Of a stretch of DNA of 64,000 bases, positions 41,221 to 52,418 are shown piece after piece. Position 1 is the stretch's first letter; each line of letters starts with the position of its first letter. A model generated the notes under the pieces. That model was given only the letters and a program-made list of their open reading frames with translations. It was not told the origin of the DNA and searched no databases. This DNA comes from Spongiibacter taiwanensis. GTDB taxonomy: Bacteria > Pseudomonadota > Gammaproteobacteria > Pseudomonadales > Spongiibacteraceae. The stretch is taken from contig NZ_CP098455.1 in NCBI RefSeq assembly GCF_023702635.1, positions 3,410,001 to 3,474,000 of the forward strand, given 5' to 3'. Made by a program: the position numbers and the translations under genes.

Positions 41221-41874
41221 TTAGCGCTGAAATTCCTTCCCCGCCAATGCGGACCAGGTGATGTGTGCCCAGGCATCGCAAGTTTCGTCGAGCTTTTCGT
41301 CGGTTAGTAATTCAGGTTGTAAAGTGCTGACACTGTCGATTGCCAGCGTCAGTAAGCTCGCGACCATGGGTCCCGCGAGGGGATTACCTCTCCCTGCCGC
41401 CTTGAGTTGTTCCGCTGCTTTCACACTACTGTGACTGAGGGATTCCCGCATGTCTCGGGAAAGTTTCGCAACCTCTGAATTGGTTTGGGCTGTTTGATGC
41501 AACGCTGAAAGCACCACATAGTGATTCCGGTACGTGCTCAGTATGCCTTTCAGCGTGTTGCGGATGTCGTGATAGGTTGTATTGGCGGCATTGATAAACC
41601 AGTCGCCGGCAGACTCGATTATTTCGATCCTCACCTGTTCAAACAGGTGGGTCACCAGATCGGCTTTGTCCTTATAGTTGAGATAAAACGTCGCTCGCGA
41701 AATTCCGGCCGTTTCAGATAGTCGGTCGATTGTGGTAGTCGAAAACTCTTCCCCGTTTTCTAGAAGCTCCTCCATCGCAAGAAGTAACTTCTTGTCTATG
41801 CTCACTTTATTCCGCCGCTTCTCCCGTTCCTTGGCTATGTTTGTTTTCGCTTTTCGGCTGGCGGCGTTAGCCAT
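41221..41874 (-). CDS. TetR-family repressor, probable regulator of the P450 operon
   Basis: 217 residues with an N-terminal HTH (FSTTTIDRLSETAGISRATFYLNYKDKADLVTHLFEQV, about 44-81) and a helical ligand domain. Basic N-terminal leader (KAKTNIAKEREKRRNK). Divergent from the catabolic cluster, with a TTAGAC-N5-GTCTAA operator in the shared gap. Confidence 0.88.
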   Translation of the reverse strand: MANAASRKAKTNIAKEREKRRNKVSIDKKLLLAMEELLENGEEFSTTTIDRLSETAGISRATFYLNYKDKADLVTHLFEQVRIEIIESAGDWFINAANTTYHDIRNTLKGILSTYRNHYVVLSALHQTAQTNSEVAKLSRDMRESLSHSSVKAAEQLKAAGRGNPLAGPMVASLLTLAIDSVSTLQPELLTDEKLDETCDAWAHITWSALAGKEFQR

Positions 41875-41963
41875 AATGGTCCCCAGAGTGGCGTGATCAA
41901 AGCGTGGGAAGTATAGCGGATTGCGGGGGTGGGGTCTAAGATCCGTATAGGTTTTAAAACAGT

Positions 41964-41993
41964 TTGATACAAAAATTAGACATGTCGTCTAAA
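41964..41993 (+). promoter_or_regulatory. promoter with embedded TetR-type operator
   Basis: TTAGAC (41976-41981) and GTCTAA (41987-41992) are exact inverted repeats with a 5-base spacer. TTGATA (41964-41969) and TCTAAA (41988-41993), 18 bases apart, would be a plus-strand -35/-10 that the repressor would cover. The 640-base gap that contains this also has a 61-residue frame (see next entry) and a CCGAGCTCGG palindrome at 42421-42430. Confidence 0.5.
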
Positions 41994-42057
41994 GTGGTTT
42001 ACAGTTTGCTTAAGTTGAGGTCGAGAGCCTCAAAGTCAAAATAACAAGGTGGGAATA

Positions 42058-42243
42058 ATGAGCATAAACGCTGCCTTAACGACCCGTTTGTTGGAATCCG
42101 TTATCTCGACATCTATTGGATTTCTTGCCTTTTCTGACAGTCGTCGTAAGTCACGTATACCGGAAGAGGTAGTGGTTGCCGCGCAGAAAAGATCTGGGCG
42201 CGTCAACGATGCGTCTATGGCGACTGGTATTAACAGATCCTGA
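42058..42243 (+). CDS. possible small protein in P450 operon leader
   Basis: A 61-codon frame with an AAGGTGGG ribosome-like site just before ATG 42058. The product (SVISTSIGFLAFSDSRRKSRIPEEVVV core) matches no family I know and has no clear domain. It may be a real first gene of the operon, a leader peptide, or a decayed fragment. Confidence 0.3.
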   Translation: MSINAALTTRLLESVISTSIGFLAFSDSRRKSRIPEEVVVAAQKRSGRVNDASMATGINRS

Positions 42244-42514
42244 TAATGATTACTAAAAATGTAGCTTTTACTACAAAGCGCAAAATGCTTCGTCGTTAAA
42301 CAGGGGGTCTATGAGTTAACCGATACTCGGATAAGCTACATGTATACCCCTGGCAGCTTAGCGTAACCATTTTCGGTAATAACCTCGGTTTGAAAAATAT
42401 ATCAATTGGTAGGTTGTACGCCGAGCTCGGTGCCAATGTATCGCTTAATTCATCGGTAATCTGTGCATGAAACTAAAGTGGGATGTTTGATAGTTTGGGT
42501 AGGTGGGAAACGAC

Positions 42515-43768
42515 ATGACAACAAAGGTTAATCAGCAGTCTACGCCTCTAATGCTGGCGGAGCCGGATAATTTCAACGCGGGATTTCCCCATGCGCTGTT
42601 TCGTGAGTTGCGGGAAGCTAGCCCGGTGTGCTGGAGTGAATGGTCGGGCGGTAAGGGCTTCTGGGCTATTACAAAGTACGAAGACGTTGGCTTTGTTGGC
42701 AGCACGCCGGGCATTTTCTCGTCTGCCAGTGAGAACGGTGGCCATCGTATTTTTGAGGAGCAACTCTCAGGGCTAGCGAATACCGGTGCAAGTGGCAGTA
42801 CGCCTGTGGGTGCGCCGTTTATCTCGAGAGATGCGCCTTTGCAGGCAGAGCAACGGGTTCCAGTAATGCGCTCGGTGTCGAGTAATCGGTTGCTTGATAT
42901 GACAAACCGTATTCGCGAGCGGATCTCACTGCTTTTAGATAAAGCGATTGATTCTGACGAGTTAGAGCTTGTTGAGAGTGTCTCTGCGCCAATCCCCATT
43001 AAAACGCTGGTGGAGCTGCTTGATCTACCCGTTAGTATGGAAGGCAAGCTTTACGAGTGGACCAATGCGCTGATCGGTGAAGACGATCCTGAGTTTCGAC
43101 AGTCGCCTGAGTATATGGGGCAAGTCATGGCGGAGCTGGCGGAATATTTCCTCGCGTTGCGGGTAGAACGCCAGGGCACTGATCGCAGTGATGTGGTGAC
43201 CATGCTGGCGACGGACCGTAGTGGCAATGAGGTTCCCGTTGAGGATTTTCTGGCCAATATCATTCTTGTGTTGGTGGGTGGAAATGAAACGACCCGCAAT
43301 TCTATATCGGGTGGCATGCTGGGCTTTGCGCAAAATCCTGAGCAGTGGTCGCTTCTGAAATCCAAGCCGGAACTGATCCCCAACGCGGTCAATGAAATTG
43401 TTCGCTGGGTTACACCGGTGATGCATATGCGCCGTACGCTCATGGAAGATTGCACTCTGCGCGGAGTCACCATGAAGAAAGGTGAAAAAGTCCTTATGTG
43501 GTATCCCTCTGCAAATAGGGATGAGGAAATTTGGACTGATCCGGATCGTTTTGATATTAGCCGTGACATTGTAAAACACCGTGGTTTTGGTGCGGGCGCA
43601 CATATCTGTGTAGGCAGTCGTCTTGCCGAACTGCAAATTAGTATTTTCCTCGAAGAGTTGCTCAAGCGTTGCGAACATTTCGAGTTAAATGGGGATGTTG
43701 CGCGCATTCGCTCTAATTTTATTTGCGGTATTAAATCCTTGCCGCTTCGCTTCGATTGGAAAAAGTGA
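42515..43768 (+). CDS. cytochrome P450
   Basis: 417 residues of soluble bacterial class. I-helix GGNETT (255-260), ExxR at E294-R297, haem loop FGAGAHICVG with proximal Cys365. Hydroxylates an organic substrate using electrons from a ferredoxin. No ferredoxin or reductase gene is in the operon, so it must borrow a partner from elsewhere. ATG 42515 has AGGTGGGA 6 bases before. First large gene of the TetR-controlled cluster. Substrate cannot be read; a terpenoid, steroid-like or alkyl compound is possible. Confidence 0.93.
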   Translation: MTTKVNQQSTPLMLAEPDNFNAGFPHALFRELREASPVCWSEWSGGKGFWAITKYEDVGFVGSTPGIFSSASENGGHRIFEEQLSGLANTGASGSTPVGAPFISRDAPLQAEQRVPVMRSVSSNRLLDMTNRIRERISLLLDKAIDSDELELVESVSAPIPIKTLVELLDLPVSMEGKLYEWTNALIGEDDPEFRQSPEYMGQVMAELAEYFLALRVERQGTDRSDVVTMLATDRSGNEVPVEDFLANIILVLVGGNETTRNSISGGMLGFAQNPEQWSLLKSKPELIPNAVNEIVRWVTPVMHMRRTLMEDCTLRGVTMKKGEKVLMWYPSANRDEEIWTDPDRFDISRDIVKHRGFGAGAHICVGSRLAELQISIFLEELLKRCEHFELNGDVARIRSNFICGIKSLPLRFDWKK

Positions 43769-43773
43769 GAAAT

Positions 43774-44997
43774 ATGATGAATGCAACTACGCCAGTAGTT
43801 AGTGACGCGCGGGTCGAAGAAGTCCATGACGCGCTGCGGCAGTTTATGGAAGAGCATATTTATCCGAACGAAGATCGCTATCGCCTGGAACTTAAGGCGC
43901 TGAGTGATAGAAGAGGTTTTCTCCCGATTCTTTCTGAGCTTCGTGAGCTCGCTAAATCTCGGGGTTTGTGGAATCTGTTTTTCTCGAATCAAACTCTGGG
44001 CAGCGGCTTCAGCAACTATCAGTACGCACCACTCGCTGAAACGATGGGGCGGGTTATGTGGGCGTCAGAGGTATTCAATTGCCACCCGCCGGAAAGCGGC
44101 AATATGGAGCTGCTTCACCACTACGCCAGTGAACAGCAGAAGCAGCAGTGGCTGATCCCTTTGGCAGAAGGGCGTATTCGCAGCGCCGTGGCAATGACCG
44201 AACCACAAGTGGCGTCGAGTGATGCAACTAATGTTGAAACAGAAATACTCCGCGACGGCGATGACTACGTTATCAACGGCCGAAAATGGTTTATCAGTGG
44301 CGCGATGCATTATGACTGCCAGTTGCTGATCGTGATGGGCAAGACCGATCCGAATCATGTCAACGTTCATCAACAGCAGTCACAGATTCTGGTGCCCATG
44401 AATACACCGGGGGTGGAAATTGTTCGTCCACTCACAGTAATGGGTTACGACGACGCGCCTTTAGGGCGCGCCGAGTTGCGCTTCACCAATGTCAGAGTGC
44501 CGGTCAGCAACATGATTCTCGGTGAAGGTCGGGGGTTTGAAATCGCCCAGGGACGCCTCGGCCCGGGGCGACTTCACCACTGCATGCGGCTCATCGGTTG
44601 TGCCCAGCGCGCACTCGAGGAGATGGTAAAGCGCGCTGAATCGCGAGTGGCCTTTGGTAAGCCATTGTCGCAACAGGGTAGCGTGCGTGAGGATATCGCC
44701 CGTTCCGTGTGTGAGATTGAGCAGGCCCGGCAATTGACCTTGATGGCAGCGCGTCGCCTGGATGACGTTGGTGCCAAGGAGGCTCGCGATATGATTGCGA
44801 TGATCAAGATCGTTGCACCCAATATGGCGCAGCAGGTTTTGGATCGCGCGATCCAGCTGCATGGTGCAGGCGGTTTAACGGAAGATTTTTTCCTCGCAGA
44901 GGCGTTTACTTATGCGCGCTGGTGTCGAATCGCCGACGGTCCGGACCAGGTGCACCTGACCTCTCTGGCGAAGCAAACGATCAAAAAATACGCATAG
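43774..44997 (+). CDS. acyl-CoA dehydrogenase, ACAD10/11-like
   Basis: 407 residues with the ACAD fold (MTEPQVASSDA, HGAGGLTEDFFLAEAF). The C-terminal loop reads RIADGPDQVH, so Asp388 sits where medium-chain enzymes have the catalytic Glu; this ADGPD-V-H loop is characteristic of the ACAD10/11 group. In that group the dehydrogenase domain acts with a kinase domain on hydroxyacyl-CoAs. A matching kinase is the next gene. ATG 43774 lies 5 bases past the P450 stop; 43777 is an alternative. Confidence 0.88.
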   Translation: MMNATTPVVSDARVEEVHDALRQFMEEHIYPNEDRYRLELKALSDRRGFLPILSELRELAKSRGLWNLFFSNQTLGSGFSNYQYAPLAETMGRVMWASEVFNCHPPESGNMELLHHYASEQQKQQWLIPLAEGRIRSAVAMTEPQVASSDATNVETEILRDGDDYVINGRKWFISGAMHYDCQLLIVMGKTDPNHVNVHQQQSQILVPMNTPGVEIVRPLTVMGYDDAPLGRAELRFTNVRVPVSNMILGEGRGFEIAQGRLGPGRLHHCMRLIGCAQRALEEMVKRAESRVAFGKPLSQQGSVREDIARSVCEIEQARQLTLMAARRLDDVGAKEARDMIAMIKIVAPNMAQQVLDRAIQLHGAGGLTEDFFLAEAFTYARWCRIADGPDQVHLTSLAKQTIKKYA

Positions 44998-45007
44998 GTC
45001 GATTGCG

Positions 45008-46030
45008 ATGACGGCGATTAATTTTATTAACACCAACGCTTTGGCAACCTATCTGCGCGAGCGGGATATTCTGCCGGTTAAACATCTCTCGGCAGAAAAA
45101 TTTCCGGGCGGCCAATCCAATCCTACTTTTTCGGTGGCGATTGACGGCAAGCGCTATGTATTGCGGCGTAAACCACCGGGCCAGTTATTAAAGTCCGCCC
45201 ATGCGATCGACCGGGAATTTCGGGTCATGGACGCATTGGGCAAAGCGGGCTTCCCGGTGCCGGCAATGCTGCATTACTGTGATGATGAATCCGTGATCGG
45301 CAGCGAGTTTTATTTGATGGAATACGTTGATGGACGCATTTTATGGGCGCCATCCCTGCCGGATTACCGACCAGCAGAGCGTGCTGAAATTTTCGATGCC
45401 ATGAACAGCACGCTCGCTGCGCTGCACCGTCTTGATGTGAATAAGATTGGTCTCGGTGATTACAGCCGTCGTGGTGATGCCTATTTCGAACGGCAGCTGT
45501 CGCTTTGGATAAAGCAGTACCGTGCGGCGGAGACCAGCACACTGGGTGAGCTGGAAACGGTTATTACCTATCTACAGCAAAATCTGCCGCCCTGCGATGG
45601 TCGTGTGGTGCTCAGTCACGGTGATTATCGCCTCGATAATATGATCTTTCATCCTTCACAAGCGAAAGTGATTGCCGTCATTGACTGGGAGCTGTCGGCG
45701 TTGGGGCATCCCCTTGCTGATCTGGCTTATCAGTGTATGCAGTGGCGCTTGCCTGAGAATAGCGAGTTGGCGGGTCTGGGTTCCCTGAGTCGGCGCGAGC
45801 TGGGCATTCCGGATGAAGAGGAGTACACCAGCCGTTACTTTGAACGTACCGGTCTGAGTCGTCCGGCAAACTGGAATTATTACCTCGTGTTTTCCTACTT
45901 TCGGTTGGCGGCAATTTTTCAAGGTGTGGTGAAGCGAAGTCGAGATGGAAATTCGTCAAATAAGCGCGCTGCTGCATTGAACGACATGATTCAACCCATT
46001 GCGCACTGCGCTTTGGCACTTTGCGAATAA
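45008..46030 (+). CDS. APH-fold kinase, ACAD10/11 / LvaA-type
   Basis: 340 residues of the aminoglycoside-phosphotransferase fold: GGQSNPTFSV nucleotide loop, catalytic LSHGDYRLDNMIFH and metal-binding VIDWELSALGHPLADLAY. This variant, as in the kinase half of ACAD10/11 and in LvaA of Pseudomonas levulinate metabolism, phosphorylates the hydroxyl of a hydroxyacyl-CoA. It lies 10 bases after the partner ACAD. It is not expected to be a resistance enzyme. Confidence 0.88.
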   Translation: MTAINFINTNALATYLRERDILPVKHLSAEKFPGGQSNPTFSVAIDGKRYVLRRKPPGQLLKSAHAIDREFRVMDALGKAGFPVPAMLHYCDDESVIGSEFYLMEYVDGRILWAPSLPDYRPAERAEIFDAMNSTLAALHRLDVNKIGLGDYSRRGDAYFERQLSLWIKQYRAAETSTLGELETVITYLQQNLPPCDGRVVLSHGDYRLDNMIFHPSQAKVIAVIDWELSALGHPLADLAYQCMQWRLPENSELAGLGSLSRRELGIPDEEEYTSRYFERTGLSRPANWNYYLVFSYFRLAAIFQGVVKRSRDGNSSNKRAAALNDMIQPIAHCALALCE

Positions 46031-46055
46031 GAATGACAATAACAGGAGTATTGGT

Positions 46056-47522
46056 ATGACCTGGGAATCACTGGAACTACCTCTGCTGACGCATCGCATT
46101 GGCGGTAGCGCGGTACCTTCGCCCTCGGAAGCGCGACTGGATTTGATCGATCCTTGCACCGGGAACTCCTACGGCGCAGCGCCAATTGCTTCGGCCAACA
46201 CAGTGGATAATGCGGTGAATGCCGCGAGAAAGGCACTTGCCGATCCCGCCTGGGCGGATATTCCCCCTCTGGCGCGTGAAGCCCTGATGCACAAGCTTGC
46301 CGATGCCCTTGAGGCCGATATGGATTATCTGGCTTCCCTGGAAGCAATGGATACCGGTCGGCCCATTGGAATTACCAAAGCGGTTGATGTGCCGGGAGCT
46401 GTTGCCTGGCTGCGAACCTACGCCGGTTGGCCGAGCAAAATTTTCGGCTCTGAACGTAAGCTTGCTTCAACACCGGGTGAGTTCCACGCCTTTGTGCGTA
46501 AAGAGCCGGTTGGCGTGGTGGCGGCGGTGACGCCTTGGAACTTTCCGCTTATTTTGAGCATGTGGAAAATTGCACCTGCTTTAGCGGCTGGGTGTAGTGT
46601 CGTTCTCAAGCCCGCGCCAGAAACGCCGATGAGCATACTCCGCTTGGCCGATCTCGCCGCTGAAGTAGGCTTTCCTCCCGGCGTTATCAATGTGGTGCTG
46701 GGTGATGGCGCGGTTACGGGTAAGTTGCTGGTCGAGCATCCCGGTGTGGCCAAGGTTGCCTTCACGGGTTCGACCGCTACCGGTCAGCGCATTCTTGCCG
46801 CTAGCGTACCGAGTCTTAAGAAAGTCACCCTGGAACTTGGTGGTAAGTCCCCTAATATTATTTTCCCTGATGCAGACCTCCCGGCGGCGATTGCCCAGTC
46901 GGCCGCATCCTGCTTTTTCAATAGCGGACAAGTCTGTTATGCCGGCACGCGACTCTACGTGCACAAAGACCTTTATGAAGCAGTGATAATGGGCTTGCAG
47001 GAGCACGCTGAGCAGGCGGCTATCGGGCCAAGCTGGAATGCCGAGTGCAGTATGGGCCCGCTCATCAGTCAGGCGCAGTACGACAAGGTAACGGCGATGG
47101 TCGAGCGAGCGGAAGCGGTGGGTATAAAGTCGGTACCGTTAACGCATAAGCTGCCGGAGCAGGGCTTTTACTTTCCGCCTACGGTGCTTCGCGACGTGGA
47201 CGGCAGTTCCGAAATCGCCAGAGAAGAAATCTTCGGTCCGGTTCTCTCGGTCATTCCCTTTGAGTCTGAGCAGGAGGTTGTCGCCATGGCAAATGATAGC
47301 GAGTACGGCCTTGCCGCCCATGTGTGGACGAAAGATCTTGGCATAGCACATCGCATGAGTAAGGCGCTGGAGGCTGGAACGGTCTTTGTGAATTGTGTGC
47401 TGCTCGCTGATCCGGCGATGCCATTCGGTGGCTATAAAAAATCGGGGCTGGGTCGGGAGAATGGCCCTGAAGCACTAGAGGCCTACCTGCAAACCAAGTC
47501 TGTGGTGATGGCCTTGCCTTAA
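46056..47522 (+). CDS. aldehyde dehydrogenase
   Basis: 488 residues with all marks of the NAD(P) aldehyde dehydrogenase superfamily: TPWNFPL, general base E260 (LELGGKSP), nucleophile C294 (SGQVCYAG), and EEIFGPVLSV. Oxidises an aldehyde to the acid for later CoA activation. ATG 46056 follows AGGAG. A MITE-like element begins at the base after its stop. Confidence 0.93.
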   Translation: MTWESLELPLLTHRIGGSAVPSPSEARLDLIDPCTGNSYGAAPIASANTVDNAVNAARKALADPAWADIPPLAREALMHKLADALEADMDYLASLEAMDTGRPIGITKAVDVPGAVAWLRTYAGWPSKIFGSERKLASTPGEFHAFVRKEPVGVVAAVTPWNFPLILSMWKIAPALAAGCSVVLKPAPETPMSILRLADLAAEVGFPPGVINVVLGDGAVTGKLLVEHPGVAKVAFTGSTATGQRILAASVPSLKKVTLELGGKSPNIIFPDADLPAAIAQSAASCFFNSGQVCYAGTRLYVHKDLYEAVIMGLQEHAEQAAIGPSWNAECSMGPLISQAQYDKVTAMVERAEAVGIKSVPLTHKLPEQGFYFPPTVLRDVDGSSEIAREEIFGPVLSVIPFESEQEVVAMANDSEYGLAAHVWTKDLGIAHRMSKALEAGTVFVNCVLLADPAMPFGGYKKSGLGRENGPEALEAYLQTKSVVMALP

Positions 47523-47699
47523 GGAACCTCTGATTAATTACTGCGCTTGCAATCTTAACCGTCGGCGGTGCTCAAAATGCTCAATTATTTGCATATAAAC
47601 TCCGTTTTTTGCGCTCCGGCGACGGCTAACCTTGCGGCGCTTAGTACGCCCCGTGAGCGCAGTGAGTGCTTTGGGTGCGCTACATTAATCAGAGTTTCC
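47523..47699. mobile_element. 177-bp MITE-like element
   Basis: Terminal inverted repeats GGAACCTCTGATTAAT (47523-47538) and ATTAATCAGAGTTTCC (47684-47699) match at 15 of 16 positions. Inside, 47555-47574 and 47610-47629 are a second imperfect inverted repeat (16 of 20), so the whole can fold. No transposase. A target-site duplication is not evident. Inserted exactly between the aldehyde dehydrogenase stop and the alcohol dehydrogenase leader. Confidence 0.75.
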
Positions 47700-47751
47700 T
47701 GAATTGCAAAACGGTTTACCCGATACCAAAACAATAATGGAGAAAGACAAA

Positions 47752-48849
47752 ATGAAAATTACCGCGGCAGTTGCCCGGCAGGCAAAAGCCCCTTTTGCGA
47801 TTGAAGAACTCGACATTGATGAGCCGAGAGGCAAAGAAATCCGGGTACGCGTTTTGGGTGTGGGAGTGTGCCACACCGATATTATTTCCCGCGACCAACA
47901 GATTCCAGTGCAACTTCCGGCTGTTCTTGGACATGAGGGTGCGGGCATTGTTGAGTCTGTTGGCAGCGAGGTGTCCAAAGTTGCGCCCGGTGACAAGGTG
48001 GTAATGAGCTTTCTTTCATGTGGACATTGCCCTAGCTGCGCATCGTCCTCACCGAGTTATTGCCATGAGTTTGCCCCACTGAATTTCCTCGGGCGTCGTC
48101 CCGATGGAAGCCCAGGACTGCGGTCTGGTGCCGAGGAGGTATCGGGCCGATTTTTTGGGCAGTCCTCCTTTGCGAGCCATGCCATTGTGGAAGAAAGCAA
48201 TGTCGTCAAAGTCGACGTGGATGAGGTCAGTTTGCCGCTCTTAGGTGCTTTGGGCTGCGGCTTTCAGACCGGTGCGGGCAGCATTATGAATTCACTGGCC
48301 TGCCAGCCGGGTGAAAACCTGGTCATCGTTGGCGGCGGCGCCGTGGGGATGTCAGCGGTGCTTGCTGGAGCGATCTGCGAGACCAATACCGTGTTGATTG
48401 AACTGAACGAGAGCCGTCGTGCGCTGGCGATAGAGCTGGGCGCGAAAGCGGCCTTGGATGGCAATGATCCCGACTTCCTTGAGCAGTTAGCAGCGGCTCT
48501 GCCTGGGGGCGTCAATAAGGTCTTTGATACCACCGGTATCGGCAGTGTTATCGAGAAATTCATCGGGCTGCTGGCGCCGCGTGGAATGGTAGGCCTTGTC
48601 GCTGCTGCGGCAGCTGATACCAAAGTTGCATTGGATGTCACGCAACTGGTCATTCGCGGAATTACTGTAAAAGGTATTCTGGAAGGTGATAGCCATCCCG
48701 ATGTCTTTATTCCCAAACTGGTTGAGCACTTCAAAGCGGGTCGCTTCCCGGTGGAGAAAATCAGCAAAACTTTTCCGCTGGATAACATTAATCAGGCGAT
48801 AGATGAGCAGAAAACATCCGCTTTTGTGAAAGCTGTTCTGCTTCCCTGA
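47752..48849 (+). CDS. zinc-dependent alcohol dehydrogenase (MDR, aryl-/allyl-alcohol type)
   Basis: 365 residues: catalytic zinc CHTD and GHEGAG, structural zinc CGHCPSC...YC, Rossmann loop GGGAVGMSA. Resembles benzyl-alcohol/geraniol dehydrogenases in its layout. Feeds an aldehyde to the neighbouring aldehyde dehydrogenase. Start ATG 47752 follows GGAGA; upstream in-frame starts lie within the MITE edge and are unlikely. Confidence 0.9.
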   Translation: MKITAAVARQAKAPFAIEELDIDEPRGKEIRVRVLGVGVCHTDIISRDQQIPVQLPAVLGHEGAGIVESVGSEVSKVAPGDKVVMSFLSCGHCPSCASSSPSYCHEFAPLNFLGRRPDGSPGLRSGAEEVSGRFFGQSSFASHAIVEESNVVKVDVDEVSLPLLGALGCGFQTGAGSIMNSLACQPGENLVIVGGGAVGMSAVLAGAICETNTVLIELNESRRALAIELGAKAALDGNDPDFLEQLAAALPGGVNKVFDTTGIGSVIEKFIGLLAPRGMVGLVAAAAADTKVALDVTQLVIRGITVKGILEGDSHPDVFIPKLVEHFKAGRFPVEKISKTFPLDNINQAIDEQKTSAFVKAVLLP

Positions 48850-48891
48850 AATCGTATTCAAAAAGAATGATAAAACCGGAGATTTTCTGCC

Positions 48892-50397
48892 GTGCCTCAT
48901 ATTCACGATCATGCCCACAGTATGCCTGACAAGATAGCGATGGTTGCCCCAGATGGGCAGGCGCTGAGCTGGAAGATGCTAAACAATGCCTCTATCGCAT
49001 TTGCCAATGCGCTTAATTCTCGCGGAATTCAGCCTGGTCGGGTGGTTTCCTTGATGATGGAGAACCGCGCAGAATACATGGTGGTGATGTGGGCTGCGCT
49101 GCGCTTGGGGCTTTACGTTACGCCGATCAATTGGCACCTCAAGTTTGATGAAGTGGCTCATATCGTTGAAGACTCAGACTCAGTATTACTGATCAGCTCG
49201 GCCATGCACAGGCAACTCAGTGCGAAAATGGCCTTACCTTTTGTAGATATTGATGAACCCGCGATGCGGGATTTATTTGACAGTGCACTGGCAAGTGAAG
49301 CCCACATTGTCCCGGAGTTTGAACAAAAAGAGGGGCAGGTCATGTACTACTCTTCAGGCACAACTGGAAAGCCCAAGGGCATACGTCGGCCCATGGTTGA
49401 GCGCCAGTTTGGCACGCCACCAGCGGTCGATACTTTTATCTCAGCGTCCTATGGAATTGATGACAACACAGTTTACCTGTCGCCTGCGCCGATGTATCAC
49501 GCGGCACCACTCAACTGGTGTTTAGCAATATTACGTTTGGGCGGCTCACTCATTACGTTGAAGAAGTTCGAGCCGGAAAGCTTTCTGGCCAATATCGAGC
49601 GCTATGGTGTCACCCACACCCAGTTAGTGCCTACGATGTTCGTGCGGCTTTTGTCTTTGCCAGACGATATTCGGCTGAAGTATGACTTGTCCTCCCTGAA
49701 AATAGCTGTGCATGCTGCCGCCCCTTGTGCACCTGAGATCAAGCATCAGATGTTGAACTGGTGGGGCATGATCATCCACGAATACTACGGTGGCAGCGAG
49801 AGCAATGGAGTGACCGCGCTAGGACCACAGGAATGGATTGACCATCCCGGGTCAGTAGGCAAGGTCGTGTTGGGTAATTTGCATATCTGTGACGAACAGG
49901 GCAATGAGCTTGGGCCTAATAAAACCGGCACCGTCTATTTCTCAGGTCTTCCCGATTTTGAATACTATAAAGACCCCGTGAAAACCCGCGAAGCTTATAA
50001 TGAAAGGGGTTACTCCACCTTGGGAGATATTGGTTATATCGATGACGATGGCTTCTTATATCTCACCGATCGCCGTGCCTTTATGATCGTTTCCGGTGGG
50101 GTAAATATCTATCCTCAAGAGATCGAAAATCTACTAATCTCCCACCCTGGAATAGCAGATGTTGCCGTGTTGGGATTGCCCAATCCCGAGTTTGGAGAAG
50201 AGGTGGTTGCCGTGATTGAACCACTCGGCGCCGTCGATTCAGAGCTTCAGTTTGTCGAAGAAGTCTCCGCATTTTGTCGCTCGAAACTGGCAGGCTTTAA
50301 ATGCCCCCGTCGTATTTTTTTACAGGATGCATTACCGAGAATGCCAAATGGAAAGCTGTTGAAGAGAACGATCAAGGAGCAATTACTCGCATCATGA
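48892..50397 (+). CDS. AMP-forming acyl-CoA synthetase
   Basis: 501 residues of the ANL family: P-loop YYSSGTTGKPKGI, YYGGSESNG, YLTDRRAFMIVSGGVNIYP and the terminal PRMPNGKLLKR lysine. Activates the acid made by the dehydrogenases to acyl-CoA. GTG 48892 is preceded by CGGAG. The stop overlaps the next gene (ATGA). Confidence 0.92.
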   Translation: MPHIHDHAHSMPDKIAMVAPDGQALSWKMLNNASIAFANALNSRGIQPGRVVSLMMENRAEYMVVMWAALRLGLYVTPINWHLKFDEVAHIVEDSDSVLLISSAMHRQLSAKMALPFVDIDEPAMRDLFDSALASEAHIVPEFEQKEGQVMYYSSGTTGKPKGIRRPMVERQFGTPPAVDTFISASYGIDDNTVYLSPAPMYHAAPLNWCLAILRLGGSLITLKKFEPESFLANIERYGVTHTQLVPTMFVRLLSLPDDIRLKYDLSSLKIAVHAAAPCAPEIKHQMLNWWGMIIHEYYGGSESNGVTALGPQEWIDHPGSVGKVVLGNLHICDEQGNELGPNKTGTVYFSGLPDFEYYKDPVKTREAYNERGYSTLGDIGYIDDDGFLYLTDRRAFMIVSGGVNIYPQEIENLLISHPGIADVAVLGLPNPEFGEEVVAVIEPLGAVDSELQFVEEVSAFCRSKLAGFKCPRRIFLQDALPRMPNGKLLKRTIKEQLLAS

Positions 50398-51182
50398 CCA
50401 CAATAATACGCCATTTTGATCCGCAAACCGGTGTGGGAGAGCTACGATTTAATCGCCCTGAGGTGTTAAATGCGATCAATGTAGTGTTGGCAAAAGATCT
50501 TGAACGAGAGTTGAATGATTTAATCTGTGTGCCGGGTTTACGCTGCCTCGTTTTGAAGGGACAGGGGCGGGCCTTTATGGCGGGTGGGGATGTCGGTGAC
50601 TTTCTGGCCGCCGGAGATAATGTGGCCGAGGTTATTCGTGAACTGTTAGCTTCCCTGAACCCCGTTGTGATGACACTTCGTTCGCTGTCGTTGCCGGTGC
50701 TGGCCGTTGCCCACGGTGCGGTTGCTGGCGCTGGACTGAGTCTGCTCGCGGCTTGCGATATAGTGCTTGCCAGCGAAGACGCAAAATTTATGATGGCATA
50801 CGACAAAATTGGTGCCCAACCTGATTGTGGAGGAAGTGCCTTGTTGCCATTGCTGGTCGGTGAGCGTCGCGCCACCGAGCTGATGTTTTGTGGCGCAATC
50901 TGGAATGCGGCGCAGGCGCTGGATTATGGATTGATTAACCAGGTTTGCGCTGCTTCAGCGCTTGATTTGCGTGCGAATGAGCTGGCTAGAGCGTTGGCTG
51001 TCGGACCAACAAAAGCGTTTGGACATTATAAAGATCTGCGAAATTCACGCTTAAATCATAGTTTCAAAGAGCATCTGGCGCTTGAAGGAAAACTATTTGA
51101 ACAGGTATCTGAAAGCGTCGATTTTCGAGAAGGAATATTGGCTTTCACGGAACGTAGAGCACCTGAATTCCAAGGGGATTAA
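50394..51182 (+). CDS. enoyl-CoA hydratase/isomerase family protein
   Basis: 262 residues of the crotonase fold: FMAGGDVGDF, GAVAGAGLSLLAACDIVLA and IGAQPDCGGSALLPLLVG. Likely hydrates the enoyl-CoA formed by the ACAD, giving a 3-hydroxyacyl-CoA for beta-oxidation. ATG 50394 overlaps the synthetase stop; AAGGAG lies 14 bases upstream. Last gene of the cluster. The 226-base AT-rich stretch after it (51183-51408) holds only imperfect hairpins and no gene. Confidence 0.9.
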   Translation: MTTIIRHFDPQTGVGELRFNRPEVLNAINVVLAKDLERELNDLICVPGLRCLVLKGQGRAFMAGGDVGDFLAAGDNVAEVIRELLASLNPVVMTLRSLSLPVLAVAHGAVAGAGLSLLAACDIVLASEDAKFMMAYDKIGAQPDCGGSALLPLLVGERRATELMFCGAIWNAAQALDYGLINQVCAASALDLRANELARALAVGPTKAFGHYKDLRNSRLNHSFKEHLALEGKLFEQVSESVDFREGILAFTERRAPEFQGD

Positions 51183-51408: not shown

Positions 51409-51816
51409 TCACTTTTCAGCTGGCCCTTTCAATTCCACCCGATTCCCCTGCGGATCAGCGATATAAATCGACGGGCCAAAGCCCTCCGCGCCGTAGCGCC
51501 GCTGAATCCCTTCATGGGCGACGCCGTGCTCCTCCAGAAACCGCAAAATCCCTTCACCATCAAAGGGCGATAGCCGCAGGCAGAGGTGATCCATATTGTG
51601 GGCCTGCTCACCTGGCGGCGGGCCGCCGTCCTGTCCCAGCGGGCTGTCGATGGGCACGATATCGATGAGCGAGGTGCCGCAGCGGAGCTGGTACAAACCG
51701 ATTTCCTCCTCGCTGCGCTCGGGTGTACAGCCGATGACGCGCGTATAAAAGTCGAGCATGGCTTGCAGTCTGTCGGTGCGCAGTACCACATGGTCCAGGG
51801 CTTGGGGATAAATCAT
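51409..51816 (-). CDS. VOC/glyoxalase-fold protein
   Basis: 135 residues with LDHVVLRTDRLQAMLDFYTRVIG and a late YIADPQGNRVELKG, the paired beta-alpha-beta metal-binding fold of glyoxalase/dioxygenase relatives. Function unknown. ATG 51816 follows GGGAGG; a longer frame from 51936 runs into yaeQ. Convergent with the catabolic cluster. Confidence 0.85.
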   Translation of the reverse strand: MIYPQALDHVVLRTDRLQAMLDFYTRVIGCTPERSEEEIGLYQLRCGTSLIDIVPIDSPLGQDGGPPPGEQAHNMDHLCLRLSPFDGEGILRFLEEHGVAHEGIQRRYGAEGFGPSIYIADPQGNRVELKGPAEK

Positions 51817-51869
51817 GGCAAGGTTCGCCTCCCGGTAATTGACGTTGGAGATACGGCCCGAGCGGGTCC

Positions 51870-52418
51870 TCAGCCTTGGGCTTGGAGTAACACGCTGGGC
51901 TGAATTTCCAGGTTGGTTGTCTCGTTGGACAGCCACAGGCTGTCATCATCAAGGGTGCATTGCAGATTCATGGTGCGCTGGGCGAGTTCGGCCAGCGCTT
52001 TGGACGCCGCCGTGGCAATCTCAATAACGGTGAGTGTCGGCAGCTCGGCAAGTTCGCGTTGATTGTCCTTCCACCATTGATCTGCCGTGCGGCCGCCGTA
52101 GCTCAGTACCACGGTTTGCCGGGCCAGGCCCCGGGCTTTGCGCAGGCGCTTGACGGTGGGCTGGCCGAGCTCGATCCACAATGCAATTTCGCCGCTCGGC
52201 GATTTTTGCCACAGATCGGGCTCATCGGTGCTGCTCAGGCCCCGGGTAAATTCCAGGTCTTCATGGGCATACAGGGCAAAGGCCAGCAGCCGCAGCATCA
52301 TCCGCTCGTCGGTTTCGGAAGGGTGGCGGGCGAGGGTCAGTGAGTAGCTGTGATAGTGGTGGCGGCGCAGGTCGCTGATATCGAGAGCGGCTTTGAATAC
52401 AGTGGCGGTCAGGGCCAT
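51870..52418 (-). CDS. yaeQ: YaeQ family protein
   Basis: 182 residues with the YaeQ core: SLTLARHPSETDERMMLRLLAFALYAHEDLEFTRGLSSTDEPDLW and IELGQPTVKRLRKA. PD-(D/E)XK-like fold; cellular role is not established. Confidence 0.93.
   Translation of the reverse strand: MALTATVFKAALDISDLRRHHYHSYSLTLARHPSETDERMMLRLLAFALYAHEDLEFTRGLSSTDEPDLWQKSPSGEIALWIELGQPTVKRLRKARGLARQTVVLSYGGRTADQWWKDNQRELAELPTLTVIEIATAASKALAELAQRTMNLQCTLDDDSLWLSNETTNLEIQPSVLLQAQG

What the first reader, a model, noticed from the sequence alone, without database searches (positions are those of the whole stretch)
41221..51182. TetR-controlled catabolic cluster joining a P450 to an ACAD10/11-type kinase and dehydrogenase pair
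Seen: P450 (Cys365), ACAD with ADGPDQVH loop, APH-fold kinase with HGDYRLDN and IDWE, ALDH, zinc ADH, acyl-CoA synthetase and ECH, all one strand, mostly a few bases apart. Known: in ACAD10/11 and Pseudomonas LvaA/LvaC the kinase phosphorylates a 4-hydroxyacyl-CoA and the ACAD-fold enzyme converts it to enoyl-CoA. Inference: P450/ADH/ALDH make a hydroxy acid from an alkyl or terpenoid compound, the synthetase loads CoA, kinase and ACAD remove the hydroxyl, ECH enters beta-oxidation. I know no description of a P450 coupled to this step.
Basis: partly seen in the sequence, partly recalled or inferred. Interest (0 to 1): 0.75.

Follow-up and report, generated by a model that had tools for sequence, protein, structure and literature searches.

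The report
P450-linked gene cluster removing blocking hydroxyl
A mobile-looking bacterial gene set joins an oxygen-inserting P450 and its follow-up enzymes to a kinase and dehydrogenase pair of the kind that removes a blocking hydroxyl group from fatty-acid-like molecules, probably so that a terpene-like compound can be eaten, but its substrate is unproven.

Summary
The cluster is real: P450, ACAD, APH-fold kinase, ALDH, zinc ADH, acyl-CoA synthetase and ECH on one strand behind a divergent TetR gene. Kinase and ACAD fall with mammalian ACAD11 in quick trees and keep the two aspartates whose mutation kills ACAD11. LvaA and LvaC were not obtained. TetR to synthetase recurs at 68-83% in 1 of 17 other same-genus genomes, in another context. 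Otherwise a P450 near ACAD11-type genes is no commoner than rough chance: 7 of 108 loci, that relative included. The same P450 family lies within 12 kb of a non-orthologous kinase/ACAD pair on an Acinetobacter and a Novosphingobium plasmid. New here: a broken TonB-receptor relic, an operator candidate, a MITE-like insert, GC 52% against 59.5% outside. Best reading: P450, ADH, ALDH and synthetase oxidise one end of a hydrophobic, probably isoprenoid compound; kinase and ACAD remove a 4-hydroxyl that would block beta-oxidation. The chemistry suits linalool-type tertiary alcohols; this is inference. New variant of a known kind.

The parts
41221..41874 (-). TetR-family regulator, divergent
   Evidence: PF00440; 78% identical orthologue at the same place in G014
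41976..41992 (.). Operator candidate TTAGAC-N5-GTCTAA between TetR and the receptor relic
   Evidence: Only exact match in the 3.71-Mb genome, control pattern 0; the aligned G014 position has 1 mismatch. Relaxed matching is at or near chance: 2 mismatches allowed, 2 found in the window against 0.6 expected and 1 in L077 against 0.33
42058..42243 (+). Relic of the 5' end of a TonB-dependent receptor gene (signal-peptide and TonB-box region, then a stop)
   Evidence: tblastn of the intact G014 receptor, residues 8-55, E 5e-8 in this 640-nt stretch; conserved AAAATAACAAGGT before the start; open frame read to its stop
42298..42452 (+). Relic of the 3' part of the same receptor gene, in two pieces of different frame; about 650 codons between the two ends are missing
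   Evidence: tblastn residues 710-761, joint E 9e-10 in this 640-nt stretch
42515..43768 (+). Cytochrome P450, Cys365
   Evidence: PF00067; orthologue 77% in G014; 44-48% to four plasmid P450s
43774..44997 (+). ACAD10/11-type acyl-CoA dehydrogenase-fold enzyme
45008..46030 (+). APH-fold kinase of the ACAD10/11 type
   Evidence: PF01636
46056..47522 (+). Aldehyde dehydrogenase
   Evidence: PF00171; 60% to N. resinovorum pSA1, 54% to A. soli pGFJ1
47519..47703 (.). 185-bp MITE-like element with 20-nt inverted ends between ALDH and ADH
   Evidence: 90% complementary ends; fold z -7.1; one partial second copy, 82% over 104 bp, at C1:3711350-3711453; G014 has 14 bp at this place
47752..48849 (+). 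Zinc alcohol dehydrogenase, benzyl-alcohol-dehydrogenase-like
   Evidence: PF08240/PF00107; 5tnx and 1f8f (benzyl alcohol dehydrogenase) best in PDB
48892..50397 (+). Acyl-CoA synthetase
   Evidence: PF00501
50394..51182 (+). Enoyl-CoA hydratase/isomerase family; not found in the G014 locus
   Evidence: PF00378; no hit in L077 at E 1e-15

Best explanation
A TetR-controlled, horizontally acquired catabolic islet for a hydrophobic, probably isoprenoid compound that already carries a hydroxyl. Shown: gene content, conservation, clade membership and catalytic residues. Inferred: (1) a TonB receptor once brought the compound in; it is broken here and intact in G014. (2) The P450, fed by a ferredoxin and reductase encoded elsewhere, hydroxylates a terminal methyl; ADH and ALDH oxidise it to an acid; the synthetase makes the CoA ester. 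(3) Beta-oxidation (ECH plus genome-encoded enzymes) shortens the chain until the old hydroxyl sits on C4. (4) The kinase phosphorylates that 4-hydroxyl, and the ACAD-fold enzyme expels phosphate to give an enoyl-CoA, as in ACAD10/11. For linalool my own carbon count gives 8-carboxylinaloyl-CoA, loss of propionyl-CoA, then 4-hydroxy-4-methylhex-5-enoyl-CoA, which is a 4-hydroxyacyl-CoA. More generally, the tertiary hydroxyl carbon of a linalool-type head bears a methyl branch, and tail-end beta-oxidation brings such carbons to C2 or C4. Likelihoods: step 4 about 0.75; steps 2 and 4 on one substrate about 0.6; a linalool-type substrate about 0.3.
For: ACAD: 51-65% identity to the other listed ACAD11-type enzymes of the order, G014 (84%) apart; about 400 bits to ACAD11 and 4hr3 against about 150 to the next ACAD. 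It lies in the ACAD11 clade apart from ordinary ACADs, and the Asp of ADGPD aligns with the residue that is Asn in 8v3v. Kinase: the Asp of HGD aligns with the residue that is Ala in 8v3u. PMC12440821 passages say that replacing these aspartates by Ala (kinase) and Asn (ACAD) abolishes the two activities. PMC11342911 passages say that bacterial orthologues can replace the ACAD10 domains and that in cells the phospho-acyl-CoA formed from 4-hydroxy but not 5- or 6-hydroxyhexanoate. Unit: TetR-P450-ACAD-KIN-ALDH-ADH-ACS collinear in G014 with different flanks as far as seen; GC 52.0% against 59.5-59.6% outside; dN 0.13-0.25 in 7 of 7 shared genes (dS could not be estimated, which I read as saturation). 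P450 link: of 6 loci with this P450 family at 44% identity or more (window, G014, four plasmids), 4 have a kinase/ACAD pair within 12 kb; window and G014 are one lineage, so this is three lineages. In A. soli and N. resinovorum that ACAD is only 31-36% identical to ours yet carries Asp (IYDGPTEVH), while the unlinked second A. soli ACAD has Glu (IYEGT). Those two loci share SDR-ACAD-KIN-ECH-thiolase-NMO-ECH in one order; A. soli also has a second thiolase, ferredoxin and reductase, which could serve two beta-oxidation rounds. Own-genome redox partners: Fer2 and ferredoxin-reductase-type genes at C1:3341294-3342862. Precedent: linalool is oxidised at C8 by P450s (PMC4097962 and PMC8197338, passages).
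Against: The P450 family is unassigned: no CYP111 sequence was available, and the best PDB scores are a reconstructed CYP125 ancestor (296 bits) and CYP153A7 (251), with P450terp at 213, so steroid or alkane substrates are not excluded. N. capsulatum and ES2-1 carry the P450 without a kinase within 15 kb (2 of 6). The plasmid kinases form another subclade than ours, so the link may be separate events. Only 51 of 108 ACAD11-type loci have a kinase within 1.6 kb, so the ACAD alone does not prove the phosphate step. No passage read here shows these enzymes acting on a tertiary alcohol; 'branched' and 'tertiary' do not occur in PMC11342911. ECH is missing from the G014 locus. In G014 the cluster's GC (55.8%) is not below its 19.5-kb locus (54.2%), so the low GC is seen on one side only. 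The receptor is broken here, so the pathway may be decaying in this strain.
Confidence: 0.55

Rival explanations
1. The P450 itself makes the hydroxyl: it hydroxylates an alkyl or fatty chain inside the chain, ADH/ALDH/ACS activate the other end, and kinase/ACAD then remove the P450-made 4-hydroxyl.
For: Same genes and conservation. CYP153 and CYP125 are among the best PDB matches of the P450.
Against: Putting on and then removing a hydroxyl spends oxygen, NADH and ATP without gain unless the chain is otherwise stuck; by common knowledge CYP153 and CYP125 hydroxylate chain ends, which needs no kinase. No call tests regiochemistry.
Confidence: 0.15
2. Sterol or other large side-chain degradation: a CYP125-like P450 oxidises the side chain and the kinase/ACAD pair handles an oxygenated side-chain carbon.
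For: The best PDB score is CYP125MRCA; a TonB receptor belongs to the cluster in G014, which suits a large, poorly diffusing substrate.
Against: Ancestral reconstructions tend to score high against many relatives; extant CYP125 scores 216 bits, below CYP153A7 at 251. No ring-cleavage gene is in the operon, though a small glyoxalase/dioxygenase-superfamily (PF00903) gene lies just beyond it on the other strand (51409-51936). Steroid genes elsewhere in the genome were not searched.
Confidence: 0.15
3. The kinase/ACAD pair is only a neighbour: a general 4-hydroxyacyl-CoA salvage pair that happened to be carried in the same operon and acts on other substrates.
For: ACAD11-type genes are common (165 of 293 order genomes), and the genome has a second pair at C1:3332456-3334675. 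P450 proximity elsewhere is near rough chance (7 of 108, against about 5% expected from 9 P450s in the own 3.71-Mb genome).
Against: Here the pair sits inside the P450-to-synthetase operon in both genomes; the second pair makes a mere salvage copy redundant; and the same P450 family is linked to a different kinase/ACAD pair on plasmids.
Confidence: 0.12
4. A decaying remnant: after loss of the receptor the islet is no longer used in this strain.
For: Receptor reduced to its two ends and an insertion element in the operon.
Against: 8 of 8 genes are open with no internal stop; dN to G014 is 0.13-0.25 in 7 of 7 shared genes while dS could not be estimated; the operator candidate is kept. How recent the receptor loss is was not tested.
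Confidence: 0.15

Closest known systems
ACAD10/ACAD11 (animals), a fused kinase and ACAD
   Same: Kinase and ACAD clades and both catalytic aspartates (ACAD11 compared)
   Different: Two separate genes here, ACAD before kinase, inside a P450 operon
lva operon of Pseudomonas putida (levulinate; LvaA/LvaC)
   Same: A kinase, an ACAD-fold enzyme and an acyl-CoA synthetase in one operon (lva content from passages of PMC12440821 and PMC11342911)
   Different: TetR instead of LvaR, no LvaB or LvaD, added P450/ADH/ALDH/ECH (LvaB, LvaD and LvaR are recalled). LvaA and LvaC sequences were not compared.
P450 linalool 8-monooxygenase (CYP111) and P450terp (CYP108) monoterpene systems
   Same: A P450 with alcohol and aldehyde oxidation (P450terp operon content recalled); linalool attacked at C8
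   Different: No kinase/ACAD step in the passages read; identity to CYP111 could not be tested; P450terp is not the closest PDB entry
Pseudomonas sp. M1 beta-myrcene island (Myr proteins)
   Same: Hydroxylase, ALDH, ADH and beta-oxidation genes for an acyclic monoterpene (PMC13111069 passages)
   Different: The representative list seen names no kinase; myrcene has no hydroxyl to remove
Acinetobacter soli pGFJ1 and Novosphingobium resinovorum pSA1 clusters (no description of them was looked for)
   Same: P450 48%, ALDH, ADH and ACS homologues plus a kinase/Asp-type ACAD pair
   Different: Another kinase/ACAD subclade, a fuller beta-oxidation set, an AraC-type regulator in pGFJ1; pGFJ1 also encodes ferredoxin and reductase

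Membership tests
ACAD10/11-type ACAD | Groups with ACAD11 apart from ordinary ACADs | tested here: met
   111-row clade, SH-aLRT 99; the ordinary ACADs included lie outside (quick tree, no bootstrap, long branches flagged)
ACAD10/11-type ACAD | Catalytic Asp in place of Glu (DGP motif) | tested here: met
   ADGPDQVH aligned to the mutated Asp of 8v3v
ACAD10/11-type ACAD | Converts 4-phosphoacyl-CoA to enoyl-CoA | not testable with these tools
   Needs enzyme assay
ACAD10/11 / LvaA kinase | Groups with the ACAD11 kinase | tested here: met
   66-row clade holding ACAD11 and 3dxp, SH-aLRT 97; the ACAD11 row has a long branch, so its place is unsure
ACAD10/11 / LvaA kinase | Groups with LvaA (and the ACAD with LvaC) | not tested
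   No LvaA or LvaC obtained: five ACAD11-type loci of family f3 had no kinase hit and no lva-like order was recognised by eye in L284
ACAD10/11 / LvaA kinase | Catalytic HxD and second DxE motifs | tested here: met
   HGDYRLDN and IDWE aligned
lva operon | lvaABCDE gene content and LvaR-type regulator (partly recalled) | tested here: not met
   TetR; ACAD precedes kinase; no gene between them; no SDR in the operon
CYP111 linalool hydroxylase | More than 40% identity to CYP111 | not testable with these tools
   No CYP111 entry among the 60 of 328 PDB rows shown or the NCBIfam hits; the P450lin paper is not held
CYP108 (P450terp) | Closest to P450terp among solved P450s | tested here: not met
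   213 bits against 296 for CYP125MRCA and 251 for CYP153A7
CYP125 / CYP153 | More than 40% identity | tested here: inconclusive
   Best PDB bit scores, but per-cent identity was not printed

The most novel reading that the evidence does not exclude
Bacteria mineralise linalool-type tertiary terpenoid alcohols by tail oxidation (P450) and then remove the tertiary hydroxyl at the 4-hydroxyacyl-CoA stage by phosphorylation and flavin-assisted phosphate elimination. This would be a terpenoid branch of the ACAD10/11 chemistry, put together at least twice with non-orthologous kinase/ACAD pairs.
Probability: 0.3. Interest if true: 0.75.

Novelty: new variant of a known kind. Interest (0 to 1): 0.5.

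Why it matters
In the passages read, aerobic linalool breakdown is documented only for its first step (C8 hydroxylation); how the tertiary hydroxyl is dealt with is not described there. This cluster offers a concrete, testable enzyme pair for it and would extend the recently described ACAD10/11 4-hydroxyacyl chemistry from fatty acids and levulinate to a P450-initiated pathway. It also suggests that such pathways travel as islets and on plasmids.

Tried and rejected
Viral contigs: no relative. Class (369 genomes) and phylum (398 genomes) samples for the P450: only the window's own copy at E 1e-85 and 1e-80. CYP111 reference: not found by papers, PDB or family models. LvaA/LvaC: 26 ACAD11-type matches in 25 genomes of one genus, which I guess from genome size to be Pseudomonas. 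Kinase neighbours were looked for only in five loci of that family (L162-L166: none) and by eye in one further locus (L284); the other matches were not examined. Kinase in the Pseudomonas sp. M1 island: no mention in passages read. Rfam and tRNA searches of the window: nothing. Consensus promoter and terminator counts are at or below shuffle level.

A broad statistical P450-kinase link was considered and rejected: 7 of 108 loci is about what P450 density alone gives. For that survey 99 regions (L161-L259) were taken from the listed rows, mostly its top, plus 9 earlier ones. Left out: L085 and L088 (ACADs not of the ACAD11 type) and the filler L260. Some regions are cut by contig ends, so counts are lower bounds, and the sample is not random. 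Trees: kinase rows under 250 aa or 60 bits were dropped (80 rows kept); ACAD rows outside 350-450 aa were dropped and ordinary ACADs taken from a few named loci only (121 rows kept). dS: NG86 gave no value and YN00 an error in 7 of 7 genes.
Full report
OBSERVATION. The window is G000:C1:3410001-3474000 of a 3.71-Mb single-contig genome. The enzyme genes form a tight + strand run from 42515 to 51182 behind a divergent TetR gene. Intergenic steps are 5 to 42 bp or overlapping, with one 229-bp exception (coordinates).

(a) In the relative G014 a 773-aa TonB-dependent receptor gene lies between TetR and the P450. In the window the same gap matches only its residues 8-55 and 710-761, the latter in two pieces of different frame, with the middle gone (E-values are for this 640-nt stretch alone). 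The stretch before the start codon is still recognisable. (b) TTAGAC-N5-GTCTAA at 41976-41992 is the only exact match in the genome; G014 has no exact match, but the aligned position there has one mismatch. With two mismatches allowed the pattern is at or near chance in either sequence, so position and alignment, not count, carry the argument. (c) The 229-bp ALDH-ADH gap carries a 185-bp element with 20-nt inverted ends that folds strongly and has one partial copy elsewhere. (d) The cluster's GC is 52.0% against 59.6% (20 kb left) and 59.5% (12.6 kb right). In G014 the cluster (55.8%) does not stand out in its 19.5-kb locus (54.2%).

DISTRIBUTION. Among 21 genomes of the family (17 others of the genus, 3 of a sister genus) only the window genome and G014 have the P450 orthologue (77%; the next best is 38% or less). 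In an order sample of 293 genomes the same two stand out (others listed are 42% or less). G014 has TetR-receptor-P450-ACAD-KIN-ALDH-ADH-ACS in the same order at 68-83% identity for the shared genes. Of 12 window flanking genes queried, only the flanking ACAD hit L077, and it hit the cluster's own ACAD. The G014 flanks (6.8 and 1.6 kb) do not match the window by blastn. ECH is not at the G014 locus. dN is 0.13-0.25 in the seven shared genes and dS could not be estimated, which I read as saturation and hence purifying selection.

IS A P450 BESIDE SUCH GENES USUAL? No. ACAD11-type genes occur in 165 of 293 order genomes at E 1e-110. Of 108 such loci examined, 51 have a kinase within 1.6 kb, 72 within 10 kb, and 7 have a P450 (38-protein panel) within 10 kb, G014 included; 5 of these 7 also have a kinase hit. 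From 9 P450s in the 3.71-Mb own genome I expect about 5% by position alone. Only G014, besides the window, has the whole set.

RELATED P450 CLUSTERS. In 72,556 plasmid records this P450 has four relatives at 44-48%; the next is 38% (one search finds the same four). Acinetobacter soli pGFJ1 and Novosphingobium resinovorum pSA1 (unannotated, read by tblastn) carry, with P450, ALDH, ADH and a synthetase, a collinear SDR-ACAD-kinase-ECH-thiolase-NMO-ECH block (51-78% between the two). N. capsulatum and N. sp. ES2-1 have the P450 with ADH, and N. capsulatum also ALDH, but no kinase hit within 15 kb. Three of the four, pGFJ1 excepted, have a TonB receptor next to the P450. The plasmid kinases fall in another subclade than ours and their ACADs are only 31-36% identical to ours. 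Yet these ACADs carry the Asp motif IYDGPTEVH, whereas the second, unlinked A. soli ACAD has the ordinary Glu motif IYEGT. So a P450 of one family is linked to two non-orthologous kinase/ACAD pairs. I read this as functional linkage, from few loci (4 of 6, three lineages).

MEMBERSHIP. The ACAD scores about 400 bits to ACAD11 and 4hr3 and about 150 to the next ACAD. In the tree (121 rows) it lies in the ACAD11 clade, apart from ordinary ACADs. The kinase's best PDB match is 3dxp, then ACAD11; in the tree (80 rows) it lies in a clade with both. The aspartates whose replacement abolishes ACAD11 kinase or ACAD activity (PMC12440821, passages) are both present: 8v3u reads HGA and 8v3v reads ANG at the aligned places. 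LvaA and LvaC were not obtained. The stated relation of ACAD10/11 to them (29% for the kinase domain; 62% and 56% for the ACAD domains) is from PMC11342911 (passages).

MECHANISM. Known: 4-hydroxyacyl-CoA is phosphorylated, then phosphate is lost; an internal redox cycle on FAD is proposed (PMC11342911, section 13). In cells ACAD10-dependent phosphorylation was seen with 4- but not 5- or 6-hydroxyhexanoate. Inferred: P450, ADH, ALDH and synthetase turn a methyl end into an acyl-CoA; beta-oxidation brings a pre-existing hydroxyl to C4; kinase and ACAD remove it. For linalool, oxidised at C8 by known P450s (PMC4097962 and PMC8197338, passages), one round from the C8 end gives 4-hydroxy-4-methylhex-5-enoyl-CoA by my own carbon count. 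I recall an old report of the matching free acids in Pseudomonas incognita; no call confirmed it. Elimination at this tertiary carbon would probably take a proton from the 4-methyl group, which is untested. Ferredoxin and reductase genes exist elsewhere in the genome (C1:3341294-3342862), in a locus with the second kinase/ACAD pair and a receptor 41% identical to that of G014.

LIMITS. The P450 family is not assigned; the best PDB scores are a reconstructed CYP125 ancestor and CYP153A7, so steroid or alkane substrates remain open. Trees are quick ones without bootstrap, and several long branches were flagged. In five literature searches of an open-access library, some with capped lists, no listed row described a P450 joined to this kinase/ACAD step.

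VERDICT. A real, conserved, mobile-looking catabolic islet; a new variant of a known kind (the 4-hydroxyacyl-CoA kinase/ACAD module), coupled to a P450. The substrate is inferred only.

Noticed in passing
window 42058-42452: Two ends of a TonB-dependent receptor gene left after an internal deletion; an intact copy exists in G014 (L077:14633-16954).
   Followed up: yes
window 47519-47703: MITE-like 185-bp element with 20-nt inverted ends, strong hairpin, one partial copy (82%) elsewhere in the genome.
   Followed up: partly
window 41976-41992: 17-bp inverted repeat, the only exact match in the genome, possibly the TetR operator.
   Followed up: partly
L078 6385-8691 and 9708-16863: Second kinase/ACAD pair of the genome, with two TetR genes, a 41%-identical TonB receptor, SDRs, ferredoxin and ferredoxin reductase downstream; possibly a second pathway for a related compound.
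   Followed up: partly
L078 33-4661: A condensation-adenylation-carrier-thioesterase (NRPS-like) protein of 1117 aa next to a family-28-type glycosyltransferase, just upstream of the second kinase/ACAD pair.
   Followed up: no
L085 9517-11735 (G015): The plasmid-type kinase/ACAD pair (62% and 73% to A. soli) also occurs in a same-genus genome; no match to this P450 in the 20-kb locus.
   Followed up: no
L162-L166: ACAD11-type ACADs with the Asp motif but no kinase hit nearby in 5 of 5 loci of family f3; 25 of 25 genomes of one f3 genus have such an ACAD, the rest of their neighbourhoods not examined. What they act on is unclear.
   Followed up: partly
L161 (G391:C2:640000-659900): Another P450 (37%) about 3.7 kb from an ACAD11-type ACAD, with an ALDH (35%), but without a kinase hit.
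   Followed up: no
L077 4622-5839: Epoxide hydrolase (EHN domain) downstream of the G014 cluster, beside a possible NAD-dependent epimerase judged by eye.
   Followed up: no
window 51409-51936: Small glyoxalase/dioxygenase-superfamily (PF00903) gene on the - strand just beyond the cluster; not present in the G014 locus at E 1e-15.
   Followed up: no
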